Shown in pieces: positions 3,637-35,451 of a stretch of DNA of 64,000 nucleotides. The notes below the pieces were generated by a model, which was not told the origin of the DNA, ran no database searches, and saw nothing but the letters and a program-made list of their open reading frames with translations. The number at the start of each line of letters is the position of its first letter. Position 1 is the stretch's first letter. This DNA is from Peristeroidobacter agariperforans (GTDB lineage: Bacteria > Pseudomonadota > Gammaproteobacteria > Steroidobacterales > Steroidobacteraceae), in the NCBI RefSeq assembly GCF_004138335.1, contig NZ_RYFW01000001.1, positions 2,405,244 through 2,469,243 on the forward strand, given 5' to 3'. Both the position numbers and the translations under genes were made by a program.

Positions 3637-4103
3637 GGAGCGGACCTCGCGCGCAGGCAGGCGTCGGATTGATCGAAGTGCTGGTGTCGCTGCTGGTGCT
3701 CTCGATCGGCATGCTCGGCCTTGCCGGGCTGCAGATGTACAGTCTGCGAAACAATCAAGGCGCGATGGAGCGAAGCATGGCCGTGGTGGAAACACATTCC
3801 ATCGTGGATGCAATGCGCGCCGATCGAGCCGCAGCGCTCGCCGGCGACTTCGACTTCGACTCCGCAAAGGCGCAGGACCTCACCGGCGAGACCTTCGCCG
3901 AACGCGCCCTGGAAACTTGGCATACCAATCTGCTCAACACCTTGGGCCCGGGCGCGAACGGTGTCGTCGCGTGCACGAGCACCGGCGCGAACTCCGGGGT
4001 GTGCACGATCACGGTCCGCTGGTCCGATGAGCGTTCGGTCGGCAGCACGACGGAACGCAAGACGGCTCGGCAACAGGAAGTGACGACCGAGGTGCAGTTG
4101 TGA
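3633..4103 (+). CDS. pilV: Type IV pilus minor pilin PilV
   Basis: A 156-residue prepilin-like protein that begins with a short basic leader and the cleavage region AG/VGLIEVLVSLLVLSIGMLG. Mature residue +1 is Val instead of Phe, which prepilin peptidase tolerates; Glu+5 is kept. The hydrophobic helix is followed by the GLQMYSLRNNQ segment typical of PilV. In the pilus priming complex PilV acts with PilW, PilX, FimU, PilE and PilY1. It overlaps fimT by four bases (ATGA) and its stop overlaps the GTG start of pilW. Confidence 0.88.
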   Translation: MRSGPRAQAGVGLIEVLVSLLVLSIGMLGLAGLQMYSLRNNQGAMERSMAVVETHSIVDAMRADRAAALAGDFDFDSAKAQDLTGETFAERALETWHTNLLNTLGPGANGVVACTSTGANSGVCTITVRWSDERSVGSTTERKTARQQEVTTEVQL

Positions 4104-11573: not shown

Positions 11574-11707
11574 ATGCGCTCCTCTATGAAAATCAGCGGG
11601 CGCTCATTGCAGCGGCGGTGTGTATCCGGCGTGTGTGGTTGGCCCGCGGCTGCGTGTTGCTTCGTTTCCACGGCGGCCGCGGATACGTTCGGATACAATC
11701 GCCGTCC

Positions 11708-12715: not shown

Positions 12716-12759
12716 TCGTCCCTTCCGACGAAGCCGGTCCCGGACCGCGTCGTTAGATT
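12716..12759 (+). promoter_or_regulatory. Predicted roxA promoter with shared operator, copy 1
   Basis: The palindrome TCGTCCCTTCCGACGA (12716-12731) is followed by 22 bases and then TAGATT (12754-12759), a -10-like hexamer. The predicted transcript would start near 12766, 37 bases before the roxA ATG. The palindrome is centred near -42, as for activators that contact RNA polymerase. Three further copies of TCGTC-N6-GACGA occur in this window with the same geometry; this copy has the most divergent centre. Confidence 0.75.
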
Positions 12760-12761
12760 CA

Positions 12762-12796
12762 CCCTGTACAGAACTCATTCGCTGGGCCGTACAGGG
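12762..12796. repeat. Inverted repeat across the roxA transcription start and ribosome site
   Basis: CCCTGTAC (12762-12769) and GTACAGGG (12789-12796) are perfect complements separated by 19 bases. The right arm merges into the GGGGG ribosome-binding stretch before the roxA ATG at 12803. If transcription starts near 12766 the left arm is only partly transcribed, which makes a DNA operator more likely than an RNA hairpin. Confidence 0.55.
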
Positions 12797-12802
12797 GGAA
12801 TC

Positions 12803-14833
12803 ATGAGACGCCTAAGACTAGGGAGGGCGTGGGCCGTGCTCGCGGCTGCGCCCATATTGTTGATCGCTCAGGGAGCAAACGGGCAGGCCTTGCCGTTGCT
12901 CGATCAGGCATCGATTCGCTCGCCGTTGATGGCGGGCTGTAATGGCAAGCCGGACAATACGCCGCTGCCGGTGGATCCGCGCTCGCTGGTGACAGCGGCC
13001 GTGAATACCAATCCGAACGCGGCGATTCAGTTCAACGCTCCTTTCGTCGATCTACACAATCCACCGCCGCCGTTCCTGAATCGTCTGCCGCCACGGCCGA
13101 GGACGTGCGGGGAGTTTCGCGCGAGCGCCACTCGCGGACGGATCAATCTCGAGGAGCGTCAGTTCTTCCTGCCGATGGCGCTGGCGGTCAGCTATCACTT
13201 CATCTACCAGCAATGGGGTTATCTGGTGCGTCCGCCAGATTTCGAAGAGCAGGTGGCCAAGCGTTATGGTTTGTATCCTGCGCCGTTCCGCAATCCCTAT
13301 CCGCTGCCGGGCGAGGATCCGAACCAGACCAATGGCGGCAGCGGCCAACTGCCATTGGGCCTGATTCAAGGCAAGGACGACAACGGCAAGTGGACGGGCC
13401 TGATCGGCGCGTCCTGCTCGGCATGTCACGACTCTCGCCTGGGCACCGCAAGCGAAGCGCCGTTCAAGTGGGGTCTGCCCAACAGTGCGAACGATGCCGG
13501 ATTGCTGGCATCGGATCTGTTCCGGACCACCCCGATCACATCGCTGGGTAATTTGTTACCTATTCCCTGGAGCAATGGTCGCGGCAGCTCGGATGCGATC
13601 GGTCTGATCTCGCTGCTGCCCGCACTGTTCGACATGGAAACCCTGACGTTCGCGCCAAGCCCGCTCGAGTATGTCGCCGACAGTCCGCATGGAGGCATGA
13701 CCAAGGCGCCGGCCTGGTGGGCGAGAGCGTTCAAGACACGCCAGTTCTGGGATGGCTCGTTGTCATCGGACAACGTGCACTCGGAGATGGCGTTCGGTGT
13801 CGCGAATCTGTTCCGCGATGCCACCATGCGCCGTAACCTCGAAGATGAGTTCGAGGACATCAACAATTTCCTGATCTCGCTGTCGCCGGCGACCTATCCA
13901 AAAACAATCAACACGGCGCTGGCGGAGCAGGGCGCGGTGATCTATCACGAGCGCGATCTGTGGGCGGGTACCGTGAATGGGGCCATTCCCAAGCCACCTG
14001 GCAACGGATCGTGCGCGAGCTGTCATGGCGTCTATTCGCCGCGGCATGCAGCAGACCCCAACTATCTGCCCGATCCTCGTTTGAAGGGCGTCGCCGCCGT
14101 GGTGACACCGATCGAAACGATCCGCACCGATCCGCAGCGTATGAAGCTGATGGCGGACGAGCGCAGCCGCCGGGCTTGGAACAGCAGTTGGTGGGCGTAC
14201 AACAGTCTCAGCCCGGACTTCACTGGCTACCCATCGGATAGCATCGTCGAGAGCGAGCTGCGTCGCGTGCCACGCGCCATCTATAACAATGGTGGGCCGA
14301 TCTATTCGCCGCTCGGACCCAATATCTGGGAGGAGCCGATCGGCTACATCGCACCGCCGCTGTATGGTGCCTGGGCGACGGCTCCGTACTTCCACAACGG
14401 CAGCGTGCCGAATTTGTGGGGCGTGCTGAAACCGGCGGATCGTCCGAAGGTGTGGAAGCGTCCGTACACTGCGCCTGGCGTGTTCGGCAAGAACGCCGGC
14501 TACGATTACAGCTTCGCGTCCTACGATTGGCAGAAGCTGGGTTGGAAGTACACGTCGGTGAATTGCAGCAACAACATCTTCACCTCGCCGTTCCTGCCTT
14601 GCACGGCCGGCATGGCGACCATCGATATCATCTATTCGATGTGGGACAACGTGGCGGCTCAGTATCTGAACCTGGCGTACCAGGTCCCGCCGCCGGTCAC
14701 GGATCAGCAGATCAAGTCGCGCATGGTCTATAACAGCTACCTGTACGGCAACGGCAACGGCGGTCACGACTTTACGCAGTCGCTGACTGACTCGGAGCGG
14801 TGGGCGCTGATCGAGTATATGAAGACGCTGTAG
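12803..14833 (+). CDS. roxA: Rubber oxygenase RoxA (secreted di-heme c-type dioxygenase)
   Basis: A 676-residue exported protein that should cleave poly(cis-1,4-isoprene) oxidatively, mainly to the C15 oxo-aldehyde ODTD, outside the cytoplasm. A signal peptide covers about residues 1-28. Two heme c motifs are present: CSACH at 205-209 and CASCH at 404-408. The characterised RoxA of Xanthomonas sp. 35Y has, as I recall, 678 residues with motifs at 191 and 390, Trp302 and Phe301 (MauG motif), Phe317 near the active heme and Ala251. With a constant offset of 14, all are found here: Trp316, Phe315, Phe331 and Ala265. This agreement separates it from ordinary cytochrome c peroxidases, which are about half as long. 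The gene stands alone between its own promoter (operator copy 1) and a strong terminator. The paralogue RoxB is the main alternative. Confidence 0.93.
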   Translation: MRRLRLGRAWAVLAAAPILLIAQGANGQALPLLDQASIRSPLMAGCNGKPDNTPLPVDPRSLVTAAVNTNPNAAIQFNAPFVDLHNPPPPFLNRLPPRPRTCGEFRASATRGRINLEERQFFLPMALAVSYHFIYQQWGYLVRPPDFEEQVAKRYGLYPAPFRNPYPLPGEDPNQTNGGSGQLPLGLIQGKDDNGKWTGLIGASCSACHDSRLGTASEAPFKWGLPNSANDAGLLASDLFRTTPITSLGNLLPIPWSNGRGSSDAIGLISLLPALFDMETLTFAPSPLEYVADSPHGGMTKAPAWWARAFKTRQFWDGSLSSDNVHSEMAFGVANLFRDATMRRNLEDEFEDINNFLISLSPATYPKTINTALAEQGAVIYHERDLWAGTVNGAIPKPPGNGSCASCHGVYSPRHAADPNYLPDPRLKGVAAVVTPIETIRTDPQRMKLMADERSRRAWNSSWWAYNSLSPDFTGYPSDSIVESELRRVPRAIYNNGGPIYSPLGPNIWEEPIGYIAPPLYGAWATAPYFHNGSVPNLWGVLKPADRPKVWKRPYTAPGVFGKNAGYDYSFASYDWQKLGWKYTSVNCSNNIFTSPFLPCTAGMATIDIIYSMWDNVAAQYLNLAYQVPPPVTDQQIKSRMVYNSYLYGNGNGGHDFTQSLTDSERWALIEYMKTL

Positions 14834-14847
14834 CGTTGGGCTTCGCC

Positions 14848-14890
14848 CCGCGTAGGCGATCCTTTTGGGGTCGCTTACGCGGTGGTTTTT
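14848..14890 (+). terminator. Rho-independent terminator of roxA
   Basis: A stem of about 15 bp (14848-14862 with 14868-14882, two G-U pairs, TTTTG loop) begins 15 bases after the roxA stop codon. A T5 run follows at 14886-14890. This is the clearest intrinsic terminator in the window and makes roxA a single-gene unit. Confidence 0.9.
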
Positions 14891-14920
14891 GAAGACCTGC
14901 CCACCCGCGCGATTTTGTTG

Positions 14921-15310
14921 CCCACCCACCCGCCCTATATTTGTTCTTGTTTGGCGCTACGCGCCGGCCGGGGCTTCGCGGAGCAGGAACGCTTGCGTTT
15001 TGTTTGGCGCTGCGCCCCCAAGTTCCTGCGCCGCCGGTCCGGCACGGGCCGGCCGGGCAGCGCGGAGCGCCAGAAGAGGAAAGAAATACGGGCGGGTGGG
15101 ACTCTTGAACACTTCACTGCGCGCCGGAGCAAGAATAGGCCGTATGGCCGCGCGCAGCGCCAAAAGAAAGAAAAAAGGCGGGTGGGTGGGCTCTTAGAAC
15201 ACTTCGCTGCGCACCGGAGCGAGAATAGGCCGTATGGCCGCGCGCAGCGCCAACAGAAAGGGCGGGTGGGCGGGCTCCTAAAACACGTCGCCCCGCGCGA
15301 TGGAGCGTGC
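14921..15310. repeat. Tandem and inverted repeat cluster between convergent genes
   Basis: A ~445-base gap between roxA and the convergent kinase gene holds repeats instead of a gene. Two near-identical units start at 15091 and about 15177; their common core, including the hairpin GGCCGTATGGCC, recurs 90 bases apart. A truncated third unit starts at 15261 and runs into the last codons of the kinase gene. An inverted, diverged copy of the unit ends lies at 14921-14966 (CCCACCCACCCGCC ... GGCGCTACGCGCC). A second copy of TTGTTTGGCGCT is near 15000. The long open frames crossing this block are by-products of its composition. It may be a REP-like or bidirectional stop element. Confidence 0.7.
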
Positions 15311-16375
15311 GAACTGCAGCAGCCCCTCCCCGATCTCACCAAATCGCTCATACCGCGAATCGCGAGTCTCACCGCGACGCCACCGAACGTGCAGCTGTTG
15401 AAAAATCACGGCAGTGCGCATCTGAGCAAGCACGCGATGAAACCTGAACGTCGAGAGATCACGGCCGAGCGCCGACGCGTAGCGCTCAGCGGCCTGCTGT
15501 CGAGTCGGAAAGCCGGCACTGGCCGTCGGCATCTGCGCCATCTGATGCATCGCTGCCGGATCGGCAGGCTCGGTCCAGTAACTCAGCAGCACCGCGAGAT
15601 CGAACAACCCGTCGCCACGAGTCCCTTGATCCCAATCCAGCACCGCAAGCGGAGCCAGCGTCGTAGGGTCGAGCAGCACGTTGTCGAGCTTGAAATCATT
15701 GTGGAGCAGTGTCGGACTGGCGTCCGGAACACAGTTCTCACGCAACCAGTGTGCGAGCTCGATGATCAGTTGCAGTGCCGTCGGCGTACCCCACCCATCG
15801 ACCGCGACGCTTGCCCGCTTGATCCAGCCTTCGGTCGCGCGCTGAAGGAAGCCCGAGGGCTTGCCCAATGTTTCCAACCCCACGCTCACCGGATCCACGC
15901 GATGCAGATCGACGAGGATATCGACGAGCGTGTTGCCGAGCGAGGCGCCGATCGTCGCATCGCCGGCGAGCGGGGCAGGCAGCGAGTCGCGTAACGAAAT
16001 GCCCGTTCGATACTCGACGATCTGAAACGGCGCACCGATGACGCGCGCATCTTCGCAAAGGTGCAGGCCACGCGGCGCGAGCGGAAACTTCTGCCACAGC
16101 CGCGAGAGAATCTGAAACTCGCGCGCCATATCGTATGCGCCTGCCGGCAGCGGCCCTTTCGGCGGTCGGCGTAGTACGGCCGGTTGGCCGTCGAGCTTGA
16201 TCAGGTAGTTCAGATTCGCGAAGCCCCCAGCGAACTGCTGCGGCGGCGTGTCGAGATCCAGCTGCATGCCCAGCCCCGCCAGATATTCGGCGAGACGCGG
16301 CCAGTACTGCGGCACGGTCTCGATTTCGGCGCGCATGGTATCGGCTGCCGCGTTCAACATCGCGTTACTCTCCAC
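15278..16375 (-). CDS. APH-fold small-molecule kinase, LvaA/ACAD10-11 kinase-like (candidate 4-hydroxyacyl-CoA kinase)
   Basis: A 365-residue protein kinase-like phosphotransferase. The catalytic loop is HNDFKLDN at 225-232 and the metal site is LDWDQ with DWD at 247-249. The N-terminal GGFANLNYLI and AVLRRPPKG are the nucleotide-binding signature of the ACAD10/ACAD11-like and LvaA-like group. Those enzymes phosphorylate the 4-hydroxyl of 4-hydroxyacyl-CoAs so that phosphate can be eliminated before beta-oxidation. It is the last gene of the operon 18640 to 15278 and overlaps the crotonase gene by 11 bases. Degrading rubber product to the end should give levulinyl-CoA, whose reduced form is the LvaA substrate; that role is inferred. 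Its last codons lie in the neighbouring repeat. No LvaB-like partner gene is visible. Confidence 0.82.
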   Translation of the reverse strand: MESNAMLNAAADTMRAEIETVPQYWPRLAEYLAGLGMQLDLDTPPQQFAGGFANLNYLIKLDGQPAVLRRPPKGPLPAGAYDMAREFQILSRLWQKFPLAPRGLHLCEDARVIGAPFQIVEYRTGISLRDSLPAPLAGDATIGASLGNTLVDILVDLHRVDPVSVGLETLGKPSGFLQRATEGWIKRASVAVDGWGTPTALQLIIELAHWLRENCVPDASPTLLHNDFKLDNVLLDPTTLAPLAVLDWDQGTRGDGLFDLAVLLSYWTEPADPAAMHQMAQMPTASAGFPTRQQAAERYASALGRDLSTFRFHRVLAQMRTAVIFQQLHVRWRRGETRDSRYERFGEIGEGLLQFARSIARGDVF

Positions 16376-17132
16376 GAAATGCGGGCGGCCGCCGCTCGGC
16401 GAAGGCGCGGACGCCTTCCTGCAGGTCTTGTGTTCGAGCTAGCAGGGATTGTGTATCCGCTTCCCAGGCAAGCATCGTGTCCAGGGACAAGGGCGAACGA
16501 GACAACATGGCCTTGGTCGTCGCAATCGCGCCCGGCGAAGCGGCGGCCAGCTCTTTGGCGAGCTGTAGCGCGGCGTCGAGCGTTTCGCCCGGGCCCACGA
16601 GGCGATCGATCAAATGCATCGACAACGCTTCTTCGGCGCCGACCTGCCTGCACAACATCAGCAGCTCTCGCGCGCGCCCGATGCCGATGCGCTGGGGCAG
16701 CGTCCACATCAATCCGTAATCGGGCGTGAGAGCCACTTTGCCGAACGCCGCGCACAACGTGGTCGACGGATCGCCGATGACGAAGTCACAGGCCATCGCA
16801 AGCGAGAAGCCTGCGCCGAATGCGCTGCCTGAGACAGCCGCCACGGCGGGCAATCGACCGCCAATCAACGCGCGCACGGCGCGATGGCCGACGTGCATTG
16901 CCGAGCGCATCGCGAGCGGCGCCGAGTCCAGGGATGAAATATCCCCGCCCGAACAGAAGTGCTTGCCGCCGTGTAAAACCAACGCACGAACTGACGGATC
17001 GTCTTGCAGCGACGTCAATGTTTGCGAGAGCGCTCGGTATAGCGAGACCCCCAGGGCATTGCGCTTCTCCGGCACGTTCAATGTCACGATGGCGACATCG
17101 CCGCGATGCTCGAGGAGTACCGGTTCACTCAT
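16365..17132 (-). CDS. Crotonase-family protein, isomerase-like active site
   Basis: A 255-residue member of the enoyl-CoA hydratase/isomerase superfamily. The CoA-binding and oxyanion segments (HFCSGGDISSL, GSAFGAGFSLAMACD) are intact. Neither of the two glutamates used for hydration is present: Ser110 stands at the first position and the second region is shortened. The segment FGKVALTPDYG with Asp138 matches the arrangement in PaaG and delta3-delta2-enoyl-CoA isomerases, where an Asp does the proton transfer. The likely job is shifting a double bond, which chains derived from polyisoprene require. It is the middle gene of a three-gene operon and overlaps the upstream gene by four bases. Confidence 0.85.
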   Translation of the reverse strand: MSEPVLLEHRGDVAIVTLNVPEKRNALGVSLYRALSQTLTSLQDDPSVRALVLHGGKHFCSGGDISSLDSAPLAMRSAMHVGHRAVRALIGGRLPAVAAVSGSAFGAGFSLAMACDFVIGDPSTTLCAAFGKVALTPDYGLMWTLPQRIGIGRARELLMLCRQVGAEEALSMHLIDRLVGPGETLDAALQLAKELAAASPGAIATTKAMLSRSPLSLDTMLAWEADTQSLLARTQDLQEGVRAFAERRPPAFRGE

Positions 17133-18640
17133 GTCACAGTCCAGTGGAGAAGGTTGTCCGCGCCGGTCGTCACTTGGCCCACGCGGCCGATGGGAGTCGT
17201 CGACAGGCTCGTCAACGCTTGCAGCGAGGCGGCATCGCTTGGCGCGACGCGCGCCATCAGGCGGGGGCCGGTGTCGGTGCGGGCGATCGCCGTGCCAAAG
17301 TCCGGCTCGCCGCCGCGGCCGTAAACGACGGTGAATGTTTCCAATGCCGCCGGCCCGCTGAAATCATCGATCAGTTCCGGCACCGGCCGCCGCAGTCGAT
17401 CGGCGCGTGCCTGCACGTTGTCATCGATGGCTGCTAGTTCGTGCTGTGGCGGTGACGAGCTCAGTAGCAACGCATGATGTTTGGTGACGAATTCGCCCTG
17501 GCCGTAAAGCAGAGCAAATCCGTCGCGCTGATTCCGCAGCCGGCGCACCAGCCCTGCGGTCGCATGCGTCATGTAGTTGTTGAGCGGTGCGCCGAAGAAG
17601 CTCAGTCCGCCGATTGAAGTCAGCCGCGCCTTGGCCGGCAGCTCGAGCACGCGTCGAGCCATCTTGGGCACGATGGGGAAGCAGCTGTACAACTCGACGG
17701 CGTCGAAGCGAGCGGCCACGTCGCGCAAAGCTTCCAACACGGCTTCTTGCGCGTACGAGCGCTGATACTGGTCCCGTTGCAAATAATCTCTTGGCTCAAT
17801 CGCTCGCGCGCCGGCGTGAATGAACACACAACGCTCGTCGGCAATGCCGAGCTCGCGAGCTTTCGCCAGTGAAGTCAGCGCGACCGCGGCGCCCTGGTTC
17901 ACGAATGGATTCGCGACCATGTGCTTGGTGTAAGGCCACGCGACGGGACGATTGTCTGGCGAGGGTGTCGCGAGTTGATCGGCCGAGTAGGCCTGCTTCA
18001 GCCAGGCGCTCGGCGTTTCCGCAGCGACTTTGGAAAAATCCGACCACAGTTCCGCCGACTCACGCATCGCTTCGGCGGGCGTTTGTCCCCACGAGGCCGT
18101 GGCCGCGTTTTCGTAGAAGGGATAAACGTGGACGGGCTGTGTCATGCCATGCCTGATCGCGACGGGATGACACAAATCCTTGCCTCGCAGCAGCCCGGCA
18201 TTCGCGCCACGAGGCGACCAGGGCAACTGAACCGATTGTTTGCTCGCGGCCGCAACGGAGTGTTGCGACTCGGCGCCGACAACGGCCGCGACGGTACTGT
18301 CTCCGGAGGCGATGCGCAGTGCTGCTTCGTGAATAAAACGAACAGGCGATTCGCCGCCTGCGACACCGTACACACAACGCTTCGGCGCACGACCGAGTCG
18401 GGCGGTGACCACGTCACAAGGCTCGGCATACGGCCAGGAATGCTCGGCGACGATGTCCAGCGAATCCAGCGCGTCGAGCAACGAGGGTGCTGCCGAACCG
18501 GCGGCGTCTTGCAAGGCGCCGAGCAGCGCATCCGCCATCAACGCCGCTGGCTCGCGCGCTTGCGCCAGGTCTGCTGGGCGGTCGATGACGTCGGCGACGC
18601 CGACGATGACGGGGATTCGGTGCGGTGGAACGATTGCCAT
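17129..18640 (-). CDS. Thiolase-like acyl-CoA acyltransferase (SCP2/TLP1 type)
   Basis: A 503-residue thiolase-fold protein of the SCP2-thiolase/TLP1 group with an extra C-terminal domain (about 415-503). The usual early Cys nucleophile region reads CVYGVAGGESPV, so the canonical nucleophile position carries Gly or Glu. Later family motifs are present (VELYSCFPIVPKMA and GGLSFFGAPLNNYMTHA). Related proteins act on methyl-branched or sterol side-chain acyl-CoAs, and some work as aldolases. It is the first gene of a tightly coupled operon with the crotonase and the kinase. ATG 18640 has AAGG seven bases upstream within a predicted 17-base leader. Here it may release propionyl-CoA from a 2-methyl-3-oxoacyl-CoA; this is inferred. 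Confidence 0.82.
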   Translation of the reverse strand: MAIVPPHRIPVIVGVADVIDRPADLAQAREPAALMADALLGALQDAAGSAAPSLLDALDSLDIVAEHSWPYAEPCDVVTARLGRAPKRCVYGVAGGESPVRFIHEAALRIASGDSTVAAVVGAESQHSVAAASKQSVQLPWSPRGANAGLLRGKDLCHPVAIRHGMTQPVHVYPFYENAATASWGQTPAEAMRESAELWSDFSKVAAETPSAWLKQAYSADQLATPSPDNRPVAWPYTKHMVANPFVNQGAAVALTSLAKARELGIADERCVFIHAGARAIEPRDYLQRDQYQRSYAQEAVLEALRDVAARFDAVELYSCFPIVPKMARRVLELPAKARLTSIGGLSFFGAPLNNYMTHATAGLVRRLRNQRDGFALLYGQGEFVTKHHALLLSSSPPQHELAAIDDNVQARADRLRRPVPELIDDFSGPAALETFTVVYGRGGEPDFGTAIARTDTGPRLMARVAPSDAASLQALTSLSTTPIGRVGQVTTGADNLLHWTVT

Positions 18641-18663
18641 GCTCGAGCCTTACTGTGCGACTC

Positions 18664-18735
18664 ATCCTGCCCGCGGGCCCAGCGCCGAAAATCGTCAGAA
18701 CCGACGAGGCGTGCTCCTCCCCCGACCCCTAGCTT
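18664..18735. promoter_or_regulatory. Divergent promoter region with shared operator, copy 2
   Basis: The palindrome TCGTCAGAACCGACGA (18692-18707) lies between two divergent operons. Rightward, 22 bases separate it from TAGCTT (18730-18735). Leftward, 22 bases separate it from CAGGAT on the minus strand (18669-18664). The leftward start would fall near 18657, leaving a 17-base leader with AAGG in the right place for the ATG at 18640. One activator site may thus serve both directions. Confidence 0.75.
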
Positions 18736-19735
18736 GATCGCACCGAAACGATACGAACCGGGGGATCCTCTGCGCACGCGCATCACCGAAATGCTGGGCA
18801 TCGCGTACCCAATAGTCCAGGGCGGGATGATGTGGGTCGGCACGGCGCAGCTGGCTGCCGCGGTTTCCAATGGCGGCGGCTTCGGCATCATCACGGCGCT
18901 GACCCAGCCCACCCCGGAAGCATTGTGGGACGAGATCGGCAAGTGTCGGACGCTCACCGATCGGCCGTTCGGCGTGAATCTCACCATGCTGCCTTCGATC
19001 AATCCGCCGCCGTACGATCGTTATCTCGACACCATCGTGCGCGCCAAGGTCGCCGCGATCGAAACAGCCGGCAAGGTGCCGCCCGAATTCATCGCAATCG
19101 CCAAGGCCGCCGGGCTCAAAGTCATTCACAAGTGCGTGTCGTTGCGACACGCACTGTCGGCGCAGAAGCACGGCGCCGACGCGATCTCCATCGACGGTTT
19201 CGAGTGCGCCGGACATCCCGGTGACGATGATGTCGGTGGCATGGTGCTCATTCCGGCAGCGGCGCGCCGATTGTCGGTGCCCATCATTGCCTCGGGCGGA
19301 ATCGGCGACGGTTGTGGCATGGCCGCGGCTCTCACGCTAGGCGCCGACGGCGTCAACATGGGCACTCGCTTCTGCGCGACCCGCGAAGCGCCGATCCACG
19401 ACAACATCAAACAGGCGCTGGTCTCGGCGAGCGAGCGAGATACCCGCCTGATCTTTCGCACCATGCACAACACCGCTCGCGTGCTCAGAAATGCGATCTC
19501 CGAAGAAGTGGTCGCGGCCGAAACAAAGGGCTGTCAGTTCGAAGACATTCGTCATCTGGTGGCGGGCCAGCGCGGGCGTGAAGCACTGATCGCGGGCGAT
19601 CCGAATGGCGGAGTGATCGCAGCCGGCCAGGTGGTGGGCTTGATCGATGACGTTCCCACGTGCGCCGAGCTCATCGAGCGCATGGTGAGCGAATGCCGCG
19701 AGCGGCTGCGGCACGTCACCGCGAGTTTCAACTAG
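18734..19735 (+). CDS. Nitronate monooxygenase-fold flavoprotein (candidate enoyl/dienoyl-CoA reductase)
   Basis: An FMN-dependent TIM-barrel protein of about 322-333 residues. It shows PIVQGGMMWVG near the N-terminus, GFECAGHPGDDDVGG in the middle, and the phosphate-binding ASGGIGDG and ALTLGADGVNMGTRF. The family is named after nitronate monooxygenase. Members inside beta-oxidation clusters, such as IpdC of sterol ring degradation, instead act on unsaturated acyl-CoAs. As first gene of an operon with FadB, acyl-CoA dehydrogenase and CoA ligases, a 2,4-dienoyl-CoA reductase role is suggested. The start is uncertain. TTG 18734 overlaps the predicted -10 box. ATG 18791 has no ribosome site. 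A CTG at 18770, after GGGGGA, would give an N-terminus reading RTRITEML, like relatives. Confidence 0.82.
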   Translation: MIAPKRYEPGDPLRTRITEMLGIAYPIVQGGMMWVGTAQLAAAVSNGGGFGIITALTQPTPEALWDEIGKCRTLTDRPFGVNLTMLPSINPPPYDRYLDTIVRAKVAAIETAGKVPPEFIAIAKAAGLKVIHKCVSLRHALSAQKHGADAISIDGFECAGHPGDDDVGGMVLIPAAARRLSVPIIASGGIGDGCGMAAALTLGADGVNMGTRFCATREAPIHDNIKQALVSASERDTRLIFRTMHNTARVLRNAISEEVVAAETKGCQFEDIRHLVAGQRGREALIAGDPNGGVIAAGQVVGLIDDVPTCAELIERMVSECRERLRHVTASFN

Positions 19736-19776
19736 TAATACATCGGGCGCGCGAGCGCGAGGAGAGGCGGATTCCA

Positions 19777-21921
<2,145 letters not shown>

Positions 21922-21928
21922 GGCAATC

Positions 21929-24735: not shown

Positions 24736-24754
24736 GACGACGATCGACGATTGC

Positions 24755-26935
24755 ATGTCACATCCACTAGCTGCACTGTTCTCGCCGCGTTCCATCGCAT
24801 TGGTGGGCGCGACGGAGCGTTCCGTCTGGACCCGCGCTGCATTCGCGAATCTGCGCACGCTCGGGTACGACGGAAAAATCTTTCTGGTCAATCGCAAGGG
24901 CGGAGAGGTGCTGGGGCATCCCGCGGTGAGCTCGATTCGTGAGATCGGCGAGCCGGTGGATGTCGCGCTGCTGATGGTGCCCTCCGAAACTCTGCTCGAT
25001 ACCTTGCCAGAGCTCAGTGCCGCGGGCATTCGCAATGCCATCATTCTGAGCGCCGGGTTTGCCGAGTCCGGCGCCGCCGGTCGTGAGCTGCAGGAACGAC
25101 TGATGAATCTGGCTCGCGAGCTCGGCATTTCGTTGCTGGGGCCGAACTGTCTGGGGTTCGTGAACTACACCAACAACGCGCCGGTGTGGACAGTGAGCTT
25201 GCGGCCGCAACGTGCTCACGCCGCAAAGGTCGCCATCGTTTCTCAAAGCGGCGCGTTGGCGGCGCAGATGTCCTACTTCGCGCAGTGGCAGGGCATCGGG
25301 CTCACTTACATGGTGTCTACCGGCAACGAAGCGGGCGTCGGTGTCGCGCAGGTCATCGATTATCTCGTCGACGATCCCGCCACTCGTTCGATCGCACTAT
25401 TCCTGGAATCGGTGCGCGACGCTCCTGCCTTCGCGCGCGCTTGCCTGCGAGCGTCGCAAGCGGGCAAACCCGTCGTGGTGCTCAAGGTCGGCAGCAGCGA
25501 GGTCACGGTTCGATCGGCGCAGGCACACACGGGCTCGTTGGTCGGCGACGATCGTGTGTTCGACGCCGTTTGTCGTCGCTTCGGGCTGGTGCGCGTGACG
25601 TCGCTCGAAGATTTGATTCTCACCGCAGAGGTGCTGGCTCGCTGGGGCAAGCTGCCCGAGGGCGGGTTGGGATTGATCTCCCTGTCCGGTGGCTTGTGCG
25701 AAATAGCCGCGGACCGCGCGGCCGACGCCGGTGTGAGCTTACCATCGTTGTCGTCGCCAGCGTCGGCGCGTCTTGCGGCTGCGCTGCCGAACTTTGGGAC
25801 GCCCCATAATCCGTTGGACGTCACCGGCGGCGCGTTGCTCGATCCATCGTTGCTCGAGAAATCACTCGATGCGATGACGGCGGAGCCTGAGTTCGCCGCG
25901 GTCCTCGCTGTGTTGGATGTGGCGTCGGCAGCCGCTGATGACAGCAAGCTGCTGCGGCAGCTGCTCGCAGGCGTGGCGGCGGCGCAGGCCCGAGCCGACC
26001 GTGCGACGTTGCTGATCAGTCACACTGTGCGGCCCTTTACAGAGATGAGCGAAGAGATCATCGAAGCTACTGGCTGCAACTATCTTCCATGCGGTCTGGA
26101 GCACGGCATCCGAGCGGTGGCGCGTGCCCTCGAGTGGTCGAAACGCTCGCGTGAGGTGCGGCCTTCGGCGAATGACAGGTGCGCGCTGCCCGGCGTTGGC
26201 TCGTCCAGCCCGCGAAGCGGGCAAATGTCCGCGGGTGTGCTATCTGTGGCCGACTCGCGACCGGAGTCCGAGCGCCAGGTGCTTCAATATTTGCAGAGCC
26301 GTGGTGTTCCGGTCGTGCCTGCCAAGGTGGTCAACAGCGCAGAAGAAGCGATCCGCCATGCGCGTACGCTTGGATCGTCAGTCGCGCTGAAGATCGTCTC
26401 TCCCGACATTCCTCACAAGACCGAAGTGGGCGGCGTGAAGCTCGATGTTACTGGCGATGCAAACGTCGCGGCTGCGTACGAGCGAATCATCGCGAGTGCG
26501 CGACGGGCCATGCCTGATGCACGCATCGAAGGTGTCTCGGTCGGACCGATGCGCGACGCCGGCGTTGAACTGTTCGTCGGCACGATGCGCGATCCGCAAT
26601 GGGGCCTGGTGATCACCATTGGCTTGGGCGGCATTTGGGTCGAAGCGCTGCGCGATGCCAGCCTGCGCTTGTTACCGATCTCGCAGGCCGACGCGCTCGC
26701 CATGTTGGATGAGCTGCGAGGCAAGGCGTTGTTGGATGGCTTCCGCGGGACGCCGGCCGTCGACCGTCTCGCCGCTGCAAACGTCATCGTTGCGATTGGC
26801 GATGCGGCCCTGGCGCTGGGTCCGCAGTTGGTGTCTTTGGAGATCAATCCGCTGCGCGCAAGCGGCGAGCGGATCGAGGCGCTGGATGGCTGGGCGGAAT
26901 GGAGCAGCTCAGGCGGCTGGAGCCGCCCGAGCTGA
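24755..26935 (+). CDS. ADP-forming acyl-CoA synthetase (acetate--CoA ligase family)
   Basis: A 726-residue fused protein of the NDP-forming acyl-CoA synthetase superfamily. A CoA-binding Rossmann domain (about 8-135, with SIALVGATERS) is followed by the succinyl-CoA-ligase-like domains with the phosphohistidine motif AHTGS at His258. A C-terminal ATP-grasp domain follows (about 500-726, VALKIVSPDIPHKTEVGGV). The reaction is reversible acid plus CoA plus ATP to acyl-CoA plus ADP. In this operon it may use short acids such as propionate, acetate or a levulinate-like end product, or recover ATP from acyl-CoA. It follows the AMP-forming ligase by 19 bases and ends 21 bases from the convergent thiolase gene. 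Confidence 0.88.
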   Translation: MSHPLAALFSPRSIALVGATERSVWTRAAFANLRTLGYDGKIFLVNRKGGEVLGHPAVSSIREIGEPVDVALLMVPSETLLDTLPELSAAGIRNAIILSAGFAESGAAGRELQERLMNLARELGISLLGPNCLGFVNYTNNAPVWTVSLRPQRAHAAKVAIVSQSGALAAQMSYFAQWQGIGLTYMVSTGNEAGVGVAQVIDYLVDDPATRSIALFLESVRDAPAFARACLRASQAGKPVVVLKVGSSEVTVRSAQAHTGSLVGDDRVFDAVCRRFGLVRVTSLEDLILTAEVLARWGKLPEGGLGLISLSGGLCEIAADRAADAGVSLPSLSSPASARLAAALPNFGTPHNPLDVTGGALLDPSLLEKSLDAMTAEPEFAAVLAVLDVASAAADDSKLLRQLLAGVAAAQARADRATLLISHTVRPFTEMSEEIIEATGCNYLPCGLEHGIRAVARALEWSKRSREVRPSANDRCALPGVGSSSPRSGQMSAGVLSVADSRPESERQVLQYLQSRGVPVVPAKVVNSAEEAIRHARTLGSSVALKIVSPDIPHKTEVGGVKLDVTGDANVAAAYERIIASARRAMPDARIEGVSVGPMRDAGVELFVGTMRDPQWGLVITIGLGGIWVEALRDASLRLLPISQADALAMLDELRGKALLDGFRGTPAVDRLAAANVIVAIGDAALALGPQLVSLEINPLRASGERIEALDGWAEWSSSGGWSRPS

Positions 26936-26956
26936 GTTCACGACTTCACATCGATT

Positions 26957-28165
26957 TTATAGGCGCTCGACGATCGTCACATTCGCCATGCCGCCGCCTT
27001 CGCACATGGTCTGCAACCCGTAACGTTTGCCACGACGATGGAGCGCATGTACGAGCGTCGTCATAAGCTTTGCTCCCGAGCCGCCCAGCGGATGACCGAG
27101 CGCGATGGCGCCGCCGTGCACGTTGAGGCGCTGCGGATCCGCGCCGGTAACTTTCAAGAACGCCAGCGGCACCGGCGCAAAGGCCTCGTTGACCTCGAAC
27201 AGATCGATGTCGTTGATGCTCATGCCAGCTTTCCGGATCGCGTTCTGAGTTGCGGGCAAGGGCGCTTCCAGCATGATGACGGGATCGTGCCCCATGACGC
27301 TCATGTGATGGATGCGGGCGAGCGGCGTTGCGCCGAGTTTCTTCAGGCCACGCTCGTTGACGATCATGACGCCGGCGGCGCCGTCGCAGACCTGGCTTGC
27401 CGTCGCGGCGGTGACGCGTCCATCCTCGGCCAGCAGCTTCACGGCGCGAATGCCCTCGATGCTGGCATCGAAGCGGATGCCTTCGTCGATGGTGTGCAAA
27501 TCCTCGGTCGCTGCGGGCGTCACGACTTCGCCGCTCGGCATGGTGACCGGAGCACGACGGATCTGCACCGGCACGATCTCGTTGTCGAATGCCTTTGCCT
27601 GCGTCGCCGCGATCGCGAGCCGATGACTCTTCAGCGCGTACTCATCCAGCTGATCCTTCGACAGTTCATATTTGCGCGCCATCATCTCGGCGCCCAGGAA
27701 CTGGCTGAACTCGACGTTCGGATAGCGCGCCTGCATACCCGGGCTGACATAAAACCCGAAGCCGTGCTTCTGGGGCAGCGACACCGACAGGCCCATCGGC
27801 ACGCGCGTCATGCTCTCGACGCCGGCGGCAATCACCACGTCCATCGATCCGGACTGGACGGCCTGCGCCGCGAAATGAATCGCTTGTTGCGAGGAGCCAC
27901 ACTGCCGATCGACCGAAGTGCCGGGCACGCTTTCGGGCAAGCAGGACGACAACACGGCATTGCGCGCCACGTTGAAGCCTTGTTCGCCGACCTGGCTGAC
28001 GCAGCCCATGATGACGTCATCGACGGCGTCGCTCGGTACTTTGGCGCGGGCGACGAGCGCGTCGATCACCTGGGCGGCGAGGTCGGCGGGATGCCAGCCG
28101 GACAGGCGTCCCCCTTTGCGTCCGCCTGCGGTGCGAACGGCAGCAACAATGTAAGCTTCGGACAT
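26957..28165 (-). CDS. Acetyl-CoA acyltransferase (FadA-type thiolase)
   Basis: A 402-residue degradative thiolase. The acyl-binding Cys is Cys89 in SVDRQCGSSQQA. The catalytic His is in NVHGGAIALGHPLGGSGA and the second Cys in MCEGGGMANVTIVE. Length and motifs fit FadA/FadI. It cleaves 3-oxoacyl-CoA to acetyl-CoA (or propionyl-CoA when the 2-carbon carries methyl) and a shortened acyl-CoA. ATG 28165 has GAGGA eight bases upstream. It is a single-gene unit under its own promoter with operator copy 4, divergent from the regulator, and it presumably completes the cycle of the FadB protein at 19777. Confidence 0.93.
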   Translation of the reverse strand: MSEAYIVAAVRTAGGRKGGRLSGWHPADLAAQVIDALVARAKVPSDAVDDVIMGCVSQVGEQGFNVARNAVLSSCLPESVPGTSVDRQCGSSQQAIHFAAQAVQSGSMDVVIAAGVESMTRVPMGLSVSLPQKHGFGFYVSPGMQARYPNVEFSQFLGAEMMARKYELSKDQLDEYALKSHRLAIAATQAKAFDNEIVPVQIRRAPVTMPSGEVVTPAATEDLHTIDEGIRFDASIEGIRAVKLLAEDGRVTAATASQVCDGAAGVMIVNERGLKKLGATPLARIHHMSVMGHDPVIMLEAPLPATQNAIRKAGMSINDIDLFEVNEAFAPVPLAFLKVTGADPQRLNVHGGAIALGHPLGGSGAKLMTTLVHALHRRGKRYGLQTMCEGGGMANVTIVERL

Positions 28166-28207
28166 GATCGATTCCTCGAGACGGTACGTTGGAGGGAGCG
28201 ATCCCGT

Positions 28208-28250
28208 ATTCTAGGCGGCGGCCGGCTCGACACTTCGTCGGATCTGACGA
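28208..28250 (-). promoter_or_regulatory. Thiolase promoter with shared operator, copy 4
   Basis: On the minus strand the palindrome TCGTCAGATCCGACGA (28250-28235) is followed by 21 bases and TAGAAT (28213-28208), the best -10 hexamer of the set. The transcript would begin near 28201, 36 bases before the thiolase ATG. Read the other way, 22 bases lead to TCAACT (28273-28278), a poor -10, so weak autoregulation of the LuxR-type gene at 28359 is possible. Confidence 0.75.
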
Positions 28251-28358
28251 TTGCAGCCGCGGCCAAACCCGCTCAACTGGGCGGAGGAAGAATCAAGCAC
28301 AGTCGATTCATGAGGGGGTTGGGCGCCGAGCGCTGAGCCGGCGGCCGCGGGTCGATAG

Positions 28359-31079
28359 ATGTACGTGGGATTGCCGAAAAATCGTTCTGACTTCGTCTCG
28401 GGCGTGCGCAATCATTTGCTGCTGGCGAAAACCACGCCGCCGACGCTGCCGGCCTCGCAAATTCCGCGCAAGGAATTGCAGGAGCGTTTGTGCCGTGCCG
28501 GCGGCGAGAGCGTGGTGTTGATTCAAGCGCCGGCGGGCTTCGGCAAGACCACGTTGATGCTGCAAGTCATGGACGGCTTGCGCGCCCAGGGCGTCACTAC
28601 CACCTGGCTCACCGTCGATGCGGCTGACAACGATGTCGGGCGCTTTCTCGCGTTCCTCGATGCGTCGTTCGATAAGTTGCTCAGTGGCGTCGCGCCCGGC
28701 ACGGAGCCGGAGAACGATGTCGCGGCCGGTGTCATCGCGCTCGACCTGATGGAGCGCATTGCCTGCACGCCGGCCCCATTCGTGCTGTTCGTCGATGACG
28801 CGGAGTCGTTACAGAACGCAGCGTCGCTGGCGGTGTTGCGACAGGTGATCGAGAACCTGCCCGAGGGCTGCCGCGTCGTGATTGGGTCGCGAACGATGCT
28901 GGACATCGGTGCGCCCCGGCTGCTCGCTCGCGGTCAATTGCTGGTGATCGATCCGATGCAGCTTCGCTTCTCGGTCGCCGAGACTGGCGACTATCTGCGA
29001 GACAAGCGTGGATTGAACGTGCCCGGCGCCGACATCGCGCGGCTGCAAGGCGCTACCGAAGGATGGCCGGTTGCGTTGTGGCTGGCGTCGCTCGCGCTCG
29101 AACGCAGCGAGCGCTCGGTCGAGTTGGTGTCGCACTTCTCCGGCTCGAATGCGTTGGTTGCGGACTATCTGGCCGAGGAAGTGCTGGCTCAGCAAAGTCA
29201 GAGCGTGCGCGAATTCCTCGTGCGCACCAGCGTGCTTCATCATTTCAACGCGCCACTCTGCGACGCCGTGCGCGGTCAACGCGACAGTCGCGAGATTCTC
29301 GAGTCGTTGCAACGCTCGAATCTGTTCGTGCAGCGGATCAGCGAGGACGGCGAGTGGTTCCGATATCACAGCCTGTTTGCCGGCTTCCTTCGCACTCAGT
29401 TGGAGCGCCTGTATCCGCAGGACATTCCCGATCTGCATCGTGCCGCGTCTCGCTGGTACGACGCGCAGAATCGCCCCGTGCCGGCCGTGGAGCATGCGCT
29501 TGCCTCGGCGGACTTCGACTATGCACTGCCGATGTTGGAGCGCATCGCCGAGCAATTGCTGGAAGGCGGACGCATCCGGCTGCTGGCGCGATTGCTGGAT
29601 TTGGTGCCGCCACAGGAGCTCGCGAACTGGCCGCATCTGCGCTTGATGCACGCCTGGGCGTTGTCATTCACGAAAGGCGGGCAGGAGGCCATGCAGATGT
29701 TGAAGCGCATCGAGGCGCAAGGCCCGCTGCCGCCGCAGCTGGAAGTGCATGCGCTTGCCTTGCGCCCGATGTTGCTCACGATGCTGGATCGGTTCGATGA
29801 GGCATACGACGCCGCTCAAGGCGCGCTCGAGCAGGTGACCGCAGAGCAGGTGTTTCCTTTCAGCATCCTGCGCACGTCGCTGGCGAACCTGCACATGATC
29901 ATGGGCAAGTACACCAACGCGCGCGAGCTGCTTGATCGCAGCCGGGTTCAGCAGGATGCGCCGGCCGGTCCGTTCATGACCATCTTCGCTCAATGTGTGG
30001 AAGGCGCCATTGACCTGCTGCATGGCCGGCTCAGGCAGGCGACCGCGCGCTTCAAACATTCCTCCGCGGTCGGCTCGCGCAAGTTCCTGATCGATACGAA
30101 TGGCAATGCCATGGCCGGCATCCTGCTCGCCGAAGTGCTCTATGAGCAGGACGAGCTGGCGGAGGCGGAGCGCTTGCTCAGCGTGTATGTGCCGCTGATG
30201 CAGGAACTGGGAATGACCGATCATCTCATCTGCGGCCATCGCAGCCTGGCACGCATTGCCCATCACGCCGGCGATCACGATCGCGCGCTGCTGGCCGTGA
30301 CCGAAATGGAATGTTTCGGCCATCGCATGAGCCTCGCACGCCTGGTGGCGAACGCACAGCTGGAGCGGGCGCGTCTGTCGTTATGGCGCAATGATGTGAA
30401 GAGCGCACGTGAAGCGTTGCAGAGGGCACGGTCGGCGGTGGATTGGACGCCGGTGATGTCCCGCGCGCTGTTTGGCAACGACATGGACACGTTGCTGGAA
30501 GGCCAGCTGCGCTTGATGATTCACAGCGGCGGGGCGGACGAGGCGGTCAATCAACTCAAACAGGAACTCGAGCGCGCCGAGAACGCCAAGCGTCATCGCC
30601 GCGCCCTGAAGCTGCGCATCCTGCTGGCGCTCGCGCTGGATAAGGCGGGTAACGCAAAGGCGTCGCTGCGCATGGCTCGAGATGCGCTCCGATTGGGTGC
30701 GCGCGAACGGTTCGTGCGGATCTTCCTCGACGAAGGCGAGCCGATGCAGCGGCTGTTGCAGCGGTTGTCGCTGGCTCAACAGAACGAGCTCGACGAAACG
30801 GCCAACCTGGCCGAATACCTGAAACGGCTCGCCGGGCAGCGCGCCGAAAAGGTCGAAGCACCGGCCCCGGCGCCCGGCGCCACCGAGGCGCTGACCCGCA
30901 AGGAGCTCGAAATCCTGCGGCTGCTGGCGGAGGGGCTGTCGAATCTGGCGATTGCCGGGCGCTTGTTCGTATCGGAGACCACGGTGCGTACGCACCTGCG
31001 CAACATCAACGCCAAGTTCGGCGTACACAACCGCACCCAGGCCATCGCCGTGGCCCGCAAGTTGAACCTGATCACCTGA
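28359..31079 (+). CDS. MalT-like LuxR-family transcriptional activator (LAL type)
   Basis: A 906-residue regulator with the architecture of MalT. An N-terminal NTPase carries Walker A APAGFGKTT (57-65) and Walker B FVLFVDD. A long helical TPR-like region (about 340-830) follows, and a C-terminal LuxR helix-turn-helix covers about 845-905 (LTRKELEILRLLAEGLSN, then SETTVRTHLRNINAKFG). Such proteins bind ATP and a small inducer, oligomerise and activate transcription. It sits in the centre of the catabolic region, and palindromic operators flank it on both sides (28235-28250 and 31087-31102), the second only seven bases after its stop. It is therefore the prime candidate for binding TCGTC-N6-GACGA, with ODTD or a derived CoA ester as inducer; both are inferred. 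Confidence 0.9.
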   Translation: MYVGLPKNRSDFVSGVRNHLLLAKTTPPTLPASQIPRKELQERLCRAGGESVVLIQAPAGFGKTTLMLQVMDGLRAQGVTTTWLTVDAADNDVGRFLAFLDASFDKLLSGVAPGTEPENDVAAGVIALDLMERIACTPAPFVLFVDDAESLQNAASLAVLRQVIENLPEGCRVVIGSRTMLDIGAPRLLARGQLLVIDPMQLRFSVAETGDYLRDKRGLNVPGADIARLQGATEGWPVALWLASLALERSERSVELVSHFSGSNALVADYLAEEVLAQQSQSVREFLVRTSVLHHFNAPLCDAVRGQRDSREILESLQRSNLFVQRISEDGEWFRYHSLFAGFLRTQLERLYPQDIPDLHRAASRWYDAQNRPVPAVEHALASADFDYALPMLERIAEQLLEGGRIRLLARLLDLVPPQELANWPHLRLMHAWALSFTKGGQEAMQMLKRIEAQGPLPPQLEVHALALRPMLLTMLDRFDEAYDAAQGALEQVTAEQVFPFSILRTSLANLHMIMGKYTNARELLDRSRVQQDAPAGPFMTIFAQCVEGAIDLLHGRLRQATARFKHSSAVGSRKFLIDTNGNAMAGILLAEVLYEQDELAEAERLLSVYVPLMQELGMTDHLICGHRSLARIAHHAGDHDRALLAVTEMECFGHRMSLARLVANAQLERARLSLWRNDVKSAREALQRARSAVDWTPVMSRALFGNDMDTLLEGQLRLMIHSGGADEAVNQLKQELERAENAKRHRRALKLRILLALALDKAGNAKASLRMARDALRLGARERFVRIFLDEGEPMQRLLQRLSLAQQNELDETANLAEYLKRLAGQRAEKVEAPAPAPGATEALTRKELEILRLLAEGLSNLAIAGRLFVSETTVRTHLRNINAKFGVHNRTQAIAVARKLNLIT

Positions 31080-31086
31080 CGCCAGA

Positions 31087-31131
31087 TCGTCAGTTCCGAC
31101 GAGTCGGGCCGACCCGCCCCGGGCCCATCCT
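31087..31131 (+). promoter_or_regulatory. TonB-receptor operon promoter with shared operator, copy 3
   Basis: The palindrome TCGTCAGTTCCGACGA (31087-31102) is followed after 23 bases by CATCCT (31126-31131), the weakest -10-like hexamer of the four. The predicted start near 31138 leaves a 63-base leader before the receptor ATG at 31201, which has GGGGGGAAAA upstream as ribosome site. Confidence 0.7.
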
Positions 31132-33525: not shown

Positions 33526-33550
33526 GCGGACGTGCGCTGTCGAAAGCCGC

Positions 33551-34663: not shown

Positions 34664-34676
34664 TCGGAGTCTTCGA

Positions 34677-35441: not shown

Positions 35442-35451
35442 GGGACTTCCT

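What the first reader, a model, noticed from the sequence alone, without database searches (positions are those of the whole stretch)
12716..31131. Four copies of TCGTC-N6-GACGA with fixed -10 spacing define an undescribed catabolic regulon
Seen directly: 16-base palindromes at 12716-12731, 18692-18707, 28235-28250 and 31087-31102. Oriented toward their genes, three read ATCGTCAGWWCCGACGA and the roxA copy differs only in the centre. Each is followed by a -10-like hexamer after 21-23 bases: TAGATT (roxA), TAGCTT (flavoprotein-fadB operon), TAGAAT (thiolase) and CATCCT (receptor operon). Copy 2 also fits leftward (CAGGAT after 22) and gives a 17-base leader with a well-placed ribosome site. A centre near -42 is the classical activator position. 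The sites join about 26 kb of otherwise separate transcription units.
Basis: seen in the sequence. Interest (0 to 1): 0.95.

Follow-up and report, generated by a model that had tools for sequence, protein, structure and literature searches.

The report
Predicted master switch for rubber digestion
Four mirror-image DNA sites stand in front of the rubber-cutting gene and of likely rubber-fragment-digesting genes of this bacterium, a fifth stands at its second rubber-cutting locus, and a related rubber-oxygenase bearer keeps all five at the matching places; they are predicted to be the switch by which one regulator protein likely turns the pathway on.

Summary
The four TCGTC-N6-GACGA palindromes are real (4 found, 0.22 expected) and intergenic. 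The bare motif is common in this genome (71 sites; 36 of the 44 first classified lie inside genes). Palindrome plus a YAnnnT (-10-like) hexamer 21-23 bases on leaves 16 sites, six intergenic; five of the six are at rubber loci. The fifth, outside the window, lies in the roxB cluster, between a LuxR-type gene and an MpaB/Lcp-family oxygenase gene.

In Povalibacter uvarum, whose roxA cluster is rearranged, all five boxes keep all ten arm bases (50 of 50) while centres have drifted (17 of 30). Of 13 gene-facing promoters in other genomes, 12 carry the hexamer at 21-23 bases, putting the box centre near -42.5. The same box flanks 44%-identical regulators in two further genomes of the group. One-mismatch versions precede roxA in two of three Halieaceae roxA genomes, both with the regulator near roxA. 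The eight box-associated regulators group together (100/99) and share a recognition helix.

Best reading: a LAL/MalT-type regulator (28359-31079) controls a rubber regulon covering both rox loci through a lux-box-like operator. Binding, activation and inducer are inferred. I met no regulator of Rox-type rubber degradation in the papers searched.

The parts
12716..12731 (+). Box 1, TCGTCCCTTCCGACGA, in front of roxA
   Evidence: orthologous box in Povalibacter L153:5405
12754..12759 (+). -10-like hexamer TAGATT, 22 bases after box 1
   Evidence: YAnnnT at 22 also in Povalibacter, P. maris and G213 roxA promoters
12803..14833 (+). roxA, rubber dioxygenase RoxA
   Evidence: NCBIfam NF050033 1276.8 bits, cut-off 1000; close match to solved RoxA 4B2N
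15278..18640 (-). Leftward unit: APH-fold protein (15278-16375), enoyl-CoA hydratase-like (16365-17132), thiolase-like with TLP1 C-terminal domain (17129-18640)
   Evidence: Pfam; one transcription unit inferred from overlap
18664..18669 (-). Leftward -10-like hexamer CAGGAT, 22 bases from box 2
   Evidence: CACGAT at 22 in Povalibacter
18692..18707 (.). Box 2, TCGTCAGAACCGACGA, probably serving both directions
   Evidence: conserved in G001 and G008
18730..18735 (+). -10-like hexamer TAGCTT, 22 bases after box 2
18791..26935 (+). Rightward unit: NMO-type flavoprotein (18791-19735, start uncertain), FadB-like (19660-21921), acyl-CoA dehydrogenase (21899-23071), AMP-binding acyl-CoA synthetase (22936-24735), ADP-forming acyl-CoA ligase-like (24755-26935)
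   Evidence: Pfam; first-start ORFs, some starts probably further in; one unit inferred
26957..28165 (-). Thiolase
   Evidence: Pfam
28208..28213 (-). -10-like hexamer TAGAAT, 21 bases after box 3
28235..28250 (-). Box 3, read TCGTCAGATCCGACGA toward the thiolase
   Evidence: conserved in G001, G008
28359..31079 (+). LAL/MalT-like LuxR-family regulator, 906 aa, predicted to bind the boxes
   Evidence: TPR_MalT and GerE; MalT model 371.3 bits, below its 537 cut-off; matches MalT structure 8BOB over 24-423
31087..31102 (+). Box 4, TCGTCAGTTCCGACGA, 7 bases after the regulator's stop
   Evidence: conserved in G001, G008
31126..31131 (+). -10-like hexamer CATCCT, 23 bases after box 4
31201..39432 (+). 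Receptor unit: TonB-dependent receptor (31201-33525), Zn alcohol dehydrogenase (33551-34663), SDR (34677-35441), aldehyde dehydrogenase (35452-36885), acyl-CoA dehydrogenase-like (36816-38678), SDR (38650-39432)
   Evidence: Pfam; one transcription unit inferred from spacing

Best explanation
The four palindromes are very likely operators of the MalT-like (LAL) regulator encoded at 28359-31079, which is predicted to switch on the rubber-degradation genes by binding each box centred near -42.5, beside RNA polymerase. Shown by sequence: boxes with exact arms sit in front of roxA, of divergent beta-oxidation-type units, of a thiolase gene and of a receptor/dehydrogenase unit, with a -10-like hexamer 21-23 bases on; a fifth box sits in the roxB cluster elsewhere in the genome; all five are kept in Povalibacter uvarum. 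Inferred: a rubber-derived oligo-isoprenoid (for instance the C15 RoxA product ODTD or a CoA derivative) plus ATP is sensed by the STAND/TPR part; the protein then binds the palindrome as a GerE-domain dimer overlapping the -35 region, recruits RNA polymerase, and co-induces RoxA, uptake, aldehyde oxidation and beta-oxidation. At the roxB locus it would act on the divergent luxR2 / mpaB-lcp promoter. In Povalibacter the same box faces a row luxR2, two dehydrogenase-subunit-like genes, roxB.
For: (1) Conservation: G000 against Povalibacter, 5 of 5 boxes, 50 of 50 arm bases identical, centres 17 of 30, ungapped 40-base flanks 130 of 400, gapped identity of the 136-base stretches around the boxes 0.47-0.65. 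The scan that found the Povalibacter boxes allowed one arm mismatch; all five proved exact. Expected exact-arm sites in those 1,275 bp: about 0.0015 from base composition, about 0.012 at the motif's own density in the window's genome. (2) Spacing outside the discovery genome: YAnnnT at 21-23 bases in 12 of 13 gene-facing promoters, 10 of 13 at exactly 22, at most one at any other single offset from 0 to 69; 20,000 shuffles reached at most 6. Over both orientations of the 12 sites: 13 of 24. (3) Specificity in the own genome: box + spacing + YAnnnT gives 19 matches at 16 distinct sites, against 2 for the reversed control; 6 of 16 are intergenic, 5 of them at rubber loci. (4) Link to the regulator: exact boxes lie within 700 bp of 7 of 63 LAL locus rows, which are 5 distinct loci of one group; 0 of 54 rows outside that group. 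The eight box-associated LALs sit on one branch with support 100/99 among 56 rows. TVR[TA]H[LM]RNI occurs in those 8 of 8 and in none of the other 48 rows. (5) Distant taxa: two of three Halieaceae RoxA genomes have a one-mismatch box with a hexamer at 22 upstream of roxA and a 41% LAL nearby. (6) Co-occurrence: of 14 genomes of the genus, the same three hold a full-length RoxA, a full-length RoxB-like gene, a regulator at least 68% identical, and the MpaB/Lcp-family gene.
Against: No binding, transcript or mutant data. The Povalibacter receptor promoter lacks YAnnnT at 21-23, while the back side of that box, and of box 4 in G000, carries one pointing into the regulator gene, so a hexamer alone is not proof of a promoter. 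The mpaB-lcp side of box 5 has its TAGnnT at 41-44, not 21-23. In G000 and G001 the roxB row itself has no box within one arm mismatch in front of it, so its control would be indirect. G009b has no exact box beside its LAL gene, only one before a fadB-like gene. The Halieaceae boxes have one arm mismatch, and a third RoxA genome (G300) has a decayed box. The exact strict 16-mer also occurs between genes in G030 of the same order, without the hexamer and with no rubber gene that I could recognise. Gene-facing orientation was chosen by me for the 13 promoters. A repressor could also sit over -35.
Confidence: 0.83

Rival explanations
1. The LAL protein binds the boxes but represses the genes until a rubber-derived ligand releases it.
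For: A box ending next to -35 would block polymerase as easily as recruit it; nothing here measures the sign of control. AlkS, a relative, represses one promoter and activates another (passage of PMC3664771).
Against: Known catabolic LAL relatives are chiefly activators (MalT, recalled; AlkS at PalkB). The fixed 22-base spacing is what contact with polymerase needs and a repressor would not. The hexamers are weak and the -35 place is filled by the box arm.
Confidence: 0.1
2. The boxes belong to another GerE-family factor, such as the small LuxR encoded in the roxB cluster (luxR2).
For: luxR2 lies beside box 5 in G000, G001 and G008, and GerE proteins generally bind palindromes (general knowledge).
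Against: In G003 and G009 the boxes lie beside or in the same stretch as a LAL gene, in P. maris and G213 near one; I saw no luxR2-like start in the gene lists of the stretches printed (luxR2 was not searched for in those genomes). The box tracks the LAL group. The luxR2 recognition region (TVRFHLKKA) differs from the LAL one (TVRTHLRNI).
Confidence: 0.06
3. Chance: TCGTC and GACGA are favoured coding words in this GC-rich genome and four fell together.
For: 71 copies genome-wide, 36 of 44 classified ones inside genes.
Against: All four are intergenic; arms are perfectly kept while centres drift; spacing holds in other genomes.
Confidence: 0.01

Closest known systems
MalT / AlkS (LAL, LuxR-MalT family activators of catabolic genes)
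   Same: Domain order: NTPase-type N-terminus, MalT TPR region, C-terminal GerE; AlkS is the alkane-responsive activator of a hydrocarbon pathway (passages of PMC3664771).
   Different: MalT sites are short asymmetric repeats (recalled); here a single strict palindrome at one fixed distance. MalT model score is below its cut-off. Predicted effector is rubber-derived.
lux box of LuxR
   Same: Inverted repeat centred at -42.5 upstream of the start, both arms needed (passage of PMC3376562).
   Different: 16 bp TCGTC-N6-GACGA instead of a 20-bp lux box; regulator is a LAL protein, not an acyl-homoserine-lactone receptor.
LcpR (TetR-type) control of lcp genes in rubber-degrading actinomycetes
   Same: Transcriptional control of a rubber oxygenase through a palindrome (passages of PMC7413915).
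   Different: TetR family, other palindromes, Gram-positive Lcp enzymes; not the same kind of regulator or box.
CrbR acetate regulon of Pseudomonas
   Same: Regulator acting through an imperfect palindrome in front of acs and other genes (passages of PMC5715377).
   Different: Response regulator of a two-component system; motif of a different sequence (TACTACCATCGTCGAAT at acs).

Membership tests
LAL / MalT family regulator | STAND/AAA-type NTPase N-terminal part | tested here: met
   AAA_16 and nSTAND_NTPase5 hits are weak and below their cut-offs, but residues 24-423 match MalT structure 8BOB at 3.3e-48
LAL / MalT family regulator | MalT-like TPR middle region | tested here: met
   PF17874 101.8 bits, cut-off 45
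LAL / MalT family regulator | C-terminal GerE helix-turn-helix | tested here: met
   PF00196 69.6 bits, cut-off 23.5
MalT (orthologue) | NCBIfam equivalog score | tested here: not met
   371.3 bits, cut-off 537: a family relative, not MalT itself
LAL / MalT family regulator | Activation by ATP and a small inducer | not testable with these tools
   needs purified protein
lux-box-like class II operator | Inverted repeat centred about -42.5 | tested here: inconclusive
   met with respect to the predicted -10; start sites not mapped
lux-box-like class II operator | Conservation of box and spacing at orthologous promoters | tested here: met
   one Povalibacter promoter of six lacks the hexamer
RoxA rubber dioxygenase | NCBIfam RoxA cut-off | tested here: met
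   1276.8 bits, cut-off 1000
RoxB rubber dioxygenase (fifth-box locus) | NCBIfam RoxB cut-off | tested here: met
   1071.9 bits in G000, 1084 in G008, cut-off 900; G001 not scanned

The most novel reading that the evidence does not exclude
A two-tier rubber-sensing circuit: the LAL protein senses a rubber fragment, activates the roxA-uptake-beta-oxidation regulon and luxR2 through the same palindrome at -42.5, and luxR2 in turn drives the roxB cluster, so that both synergistic rubber oxygenases come under one switch. The LAL-box pair is an old portable module reused for other catabolic clusters, and its operator changed together with the recognition helix (TCGTC with TVRTH in the Steroidobacter group, TAGTC with TVRAH in Halieaceae).
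Probability: 0.35. Interest if true: 0.8.

Novelty: new member of a known kind. Interest (0 to 1): 0.72.

Why it matters
How Gram-negative bacteria switch on rubber breakdown was not described in the papers I met; term searches inside two reviews showed no regulator of rox genes. This gives a named regulator, an operator with a testable consensus, its spacing rule, and a gene list covering RoxA, RoxB, a molybdenum-hydroxylase-like pair, receptors and beta-oxidation genes. It makes the downstream pathway of the C15 rubber fragment guessable from shared boxes, and offers a possible sensor for rubber fragments.

Tried and rejected
AMACR-like/thiolase site (L049, C9:2874575, one mismatch to the strict form): lies inside the called 5' end of the gene; exact arms in the G001 orthologue, no exact-arm site listed at the best relatives in G003, G009, G008 and P. 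maris (which printed only sites with at least two A/T in the centre). Not counted. Povalibacter site G008:C6:572089 (L155): inside a long kinase-like gene, taken as chance. Own-genome intergenic sites L001, L208, L210: absent from the spacing search; neighbours read from translations only. L260: has the spacing, but does not face the start of either neighbouring called gene. Not counted. G030 strict site (L033): intergenic, no hexamer, neighbours not recognised; unexplained.

Hairpin or terminator reading of box 4, just after the regulator's stop: set aside because the arms are shared with sites that are not after genes; not folded. My first coding test called two known intergenic sites coding and was replaced by a codon-based caller.

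Literature: word searches over open-licence papers; each listed only its top rows (for example 20 of 547, 20 of 43, 20 of 28). No listed title or abstract start showed a Gram-negative rubber regulator, but absence from print is not established, nor is absence of this palindrome from print. I saw passages found by term in PMC5979037, PMC5715377, PMC7413915, PMC6311187, PMC3664771 and PMC3376562; in PMC10837239 the six terms asked did not occur. All others: listing only.

Rows left out: the tree used 8 box-associated LALs and 48 other rows (44 different); partial, short and some further LAL loci were left out by choice. One search used 63 rows (at most 61 distinct loci). Of the 71 own-genome sites, 44 were classified as coding or not and six more where one search matched them; the rest were not.
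Full report
Observation. The four palindromes TCGTC-N6-GACGA are at the stated places, against 0.22 expected from shuffles. All four lie between called genes. With a 22-base gap and a hexamer at -12 to -7, the box centre lies at -42.5.

Setting. The window is G000:C9:2405244-2469243 of a 7.65 Mb genome. The gene at 12803-14833 is RoxA (NF050033, 1276.8 bits). It is close to, but not identical with, the solved RoxA 4B2N, so this is not the strain of that structure. Around it lie a FadB-like protein, acyl-CoA dehydrogenases, acyl-CoA ligases, thiolases, a TonB-dependent receptor, alcohol and aldehyde dehydrogenases. The gene at 28359-31079 encodes a 906-aa LAL/MalT-like regulator.

Is the motif special? 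Alone, no: 71 copies in the genome, 37 for the reversed control. Of 44 distinct TCGTCH-class sites, 36 fall inside called genes and 8 between genes. The strict form has three copies, all here. Adding the spacing rule (box, 21-23 bases, YAnnnT) gives 19 matches at 16 distinct sites, 2 for the reversed control. Six of the 16 are intergenic: the four window boxes, one on another contig (C11:537535), and one low-complexity site that does not face the start of a neighbouring called gene.

The fifth box. C11:537535 (L244:10036) lies between a small LuxR-type gene (called luxR2 here) and a gene of the MPAB_Lcp_cat family (PF09995, 165.6 bits), followed by an acyl-CoA synthetase gene. A TonB-dependent receptor gene, a molybdenum-hydroxylase-like gene pair (hits below NCBIfam cut-offs) and RoxB (NF050034, 1071.9 bits) lie within 9 kb. 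This box was listed from the window's consensus before I knew the neighbours. The MPAB_Lcp_cat gene occurs in 3 of 14 genomes of the genus, the same three that hold full-length RoxA and RoxB-like genes and a regulator at least 68% identical.

Conservation. In Povalibacter the roxA cluster is rearranged: roxA sits between the thiolase-like gene and the flavoprotein gene. Still, each promoter region looked for has one box: thiolase-like/roxA, roxA/flavoprotein, thiolase/regulator, regulator/receptor, and luxR2/mpaB-lcp at the roxB locus. Arms: 50 of 50 bases identical; centres 17 of 30; ungapped flanks 130 of 400; gapped identity of the stretches 0.47-0.65. In those 1,275 bp about 0.0015 exact-arm sites are expected from base composition, about 0.012 at the motif's density in the window's genome.

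Other regulators of the same group. G003 and G009 carry 44-45% identical LAL genes; their only RoxA matches are short ones at E about 1e-5. In G003 and at one G009 locus exact boxes with different, A/T-rich centres lie on both sides of the LAL gene; at the other G009 locus an exact box precedes a fadB-like gene. In the family of Parahaliea maris (Halieaceae), 3 of 140 genomes have a RoxA match at E up to 1e-60. P. maris (roxA and LAL 1.5 kb apart) and G213 (adjacent) have TAGTCC-N4-GGACGA upstream of roxA with a hexamer 22 bases on. The third, G300, has a decayed left arm, a TATGTT at about 20 (read), and no LAL match in about 17 and 19 kb on the two sides of roxA. That agrees with joint loss, but LAL was not sought elsewhere in G300.

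Spacing outside the discovery genome. In 13 gene-facing promoters of G008, G003, G009, P. maris and G213, 12 have YAnnnT at 21-23 and 10 at exactly 22; each other single offset from 0 to 69 has at most one. I chose the facing side; over all 24 orientations of the 12 sites the count is 13. Boxes between a LAL gene and its divergent neighbour have the hexamer on the neighbour's side only (G000, G001, G008, G003, G009), so the regulator's own promoter is not predicted to use it. Against this: box 4 in G000 and its Povalibacter counterpart also have a YAnnnT at 22 pointing back into the regulator gene. The exception among the 13 is the Povalibacter receptor promoter. The mpaB-lcp side of box 5 keeps TAGnnT at 41 (G000) or 44 (G001, G008) bases, which would put the box at -61.5 to -64.5.

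Link to the regulator. Of 63 LAL locus rows scanned (at most 61 distinct loci), exact boxes lie within 700 bp of 7 rows (5 loci), all of one group; none of 54 rows outside the group has one. The tree of 56 rows puts the eight box-associated LALs on one branch with support 100/99 (rooted at the midpoint for drawing only). They share TVR[TA]H[LM]RNI in the GerE recognition region; none of the other 48 rows has it. In Halieaceae T changes to A in that motif and the box's second base from C to A; with two lineages this is only a hint.

A result that does not fit: the exact strict 16-mer also occurs in G030 of the same order, between genes, without the hexamer and with no rubber gene that I could recognise. 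A looser 17-mer was found in 18 of 40 relatives, as expected for a motif common in coding DNA; most of those contexts were not examined.

Mechanism. Shown: sites, spacing, conservation, association with one regulator group and with both Rox loci. Inferred: the LAL protein binds the box as a dimer, activates from -42.5, and responds to a rubber-derived ligand. The sign of regulation is inferred from family (AlkS passages) and geometry (lux box passage).

Known work. The six terms asked (regulator, MalT, TonB, expression of rox, induc, promoter) do not occur in the review PMC10837239. In the review PMC6311187, passages found by term show no regulator of rox genes and stress the synergy of RoxA and RoxB, which a shared box would serve. 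Passages of the Steroidobacter cummioxidans genome paper PMC5979037 name none for rox. TetR-type LcpR regulators are known for actinomycete lcp genes (PMC7413915 passages).

Verdict. New member of a known kind (LAL-controlled catabolic regulon with a lux-box-like operator), notable for the pathway it controls.

Noticed in passing
L208:1501-1516 (G000:C13:334887) and L211:1501-1516 (G003): The same 16-bp palindrome TCGTCTGAACGGACGA (reverse complement in L211) lies in a 44-base gap inside a gene row whose products look like the CcmA/CcmB/CcmC haem exporter (names from my reading of the sequence, not from a call). It is kept in G003, which lacks a full-length RoxA, and has no -10 at the box spacing; possibly unrelated, though Rox enzymes need c-type haem.
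   Followed up: partly
L033:1502-1517 (G030): Exact strict box ATCGTCAGTTCCGACGA between genes in a genome of the same order, without the hexamer; neighbours not identified.
   Followed up: partly
L049 (G000:C9:2874575): One-mismatch strict box in the first codons of a CoA-transferase family III (AMACR-like) gene divergent from a thiolase gene; exact arms in G001, none listed for G003.
   Followed up: partly
L148 and L150: A closely similar catabolic gene row in G003 and G009 lies next to box-flanked LAL regulators; its substrate was not worked out.
   Followed up: no
window 57507-57522: Intergenic palindrome CCGTCGTATACGACGG (two arm mismatches) with a YAnnnT hexamer 21 bases away on the minus strand.
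   Followed up: no
window 11531-12685: The gene just upstream of roxA matches an N6/N4 DNA methylase domain near its C-terminus (PF01555, 44.3 bits).
   Followed up: no
L244:4391-6595 and 3927-4370: Molybdenum-hydroxylase-like pair next to RoxB, the large one with an RRRFLQ Tat-like start, with hits below cut-off to families such as PaoA and PaoC: a candidate oxidase for the aldehyde ends of rubber fragments.
   Followed up: partly
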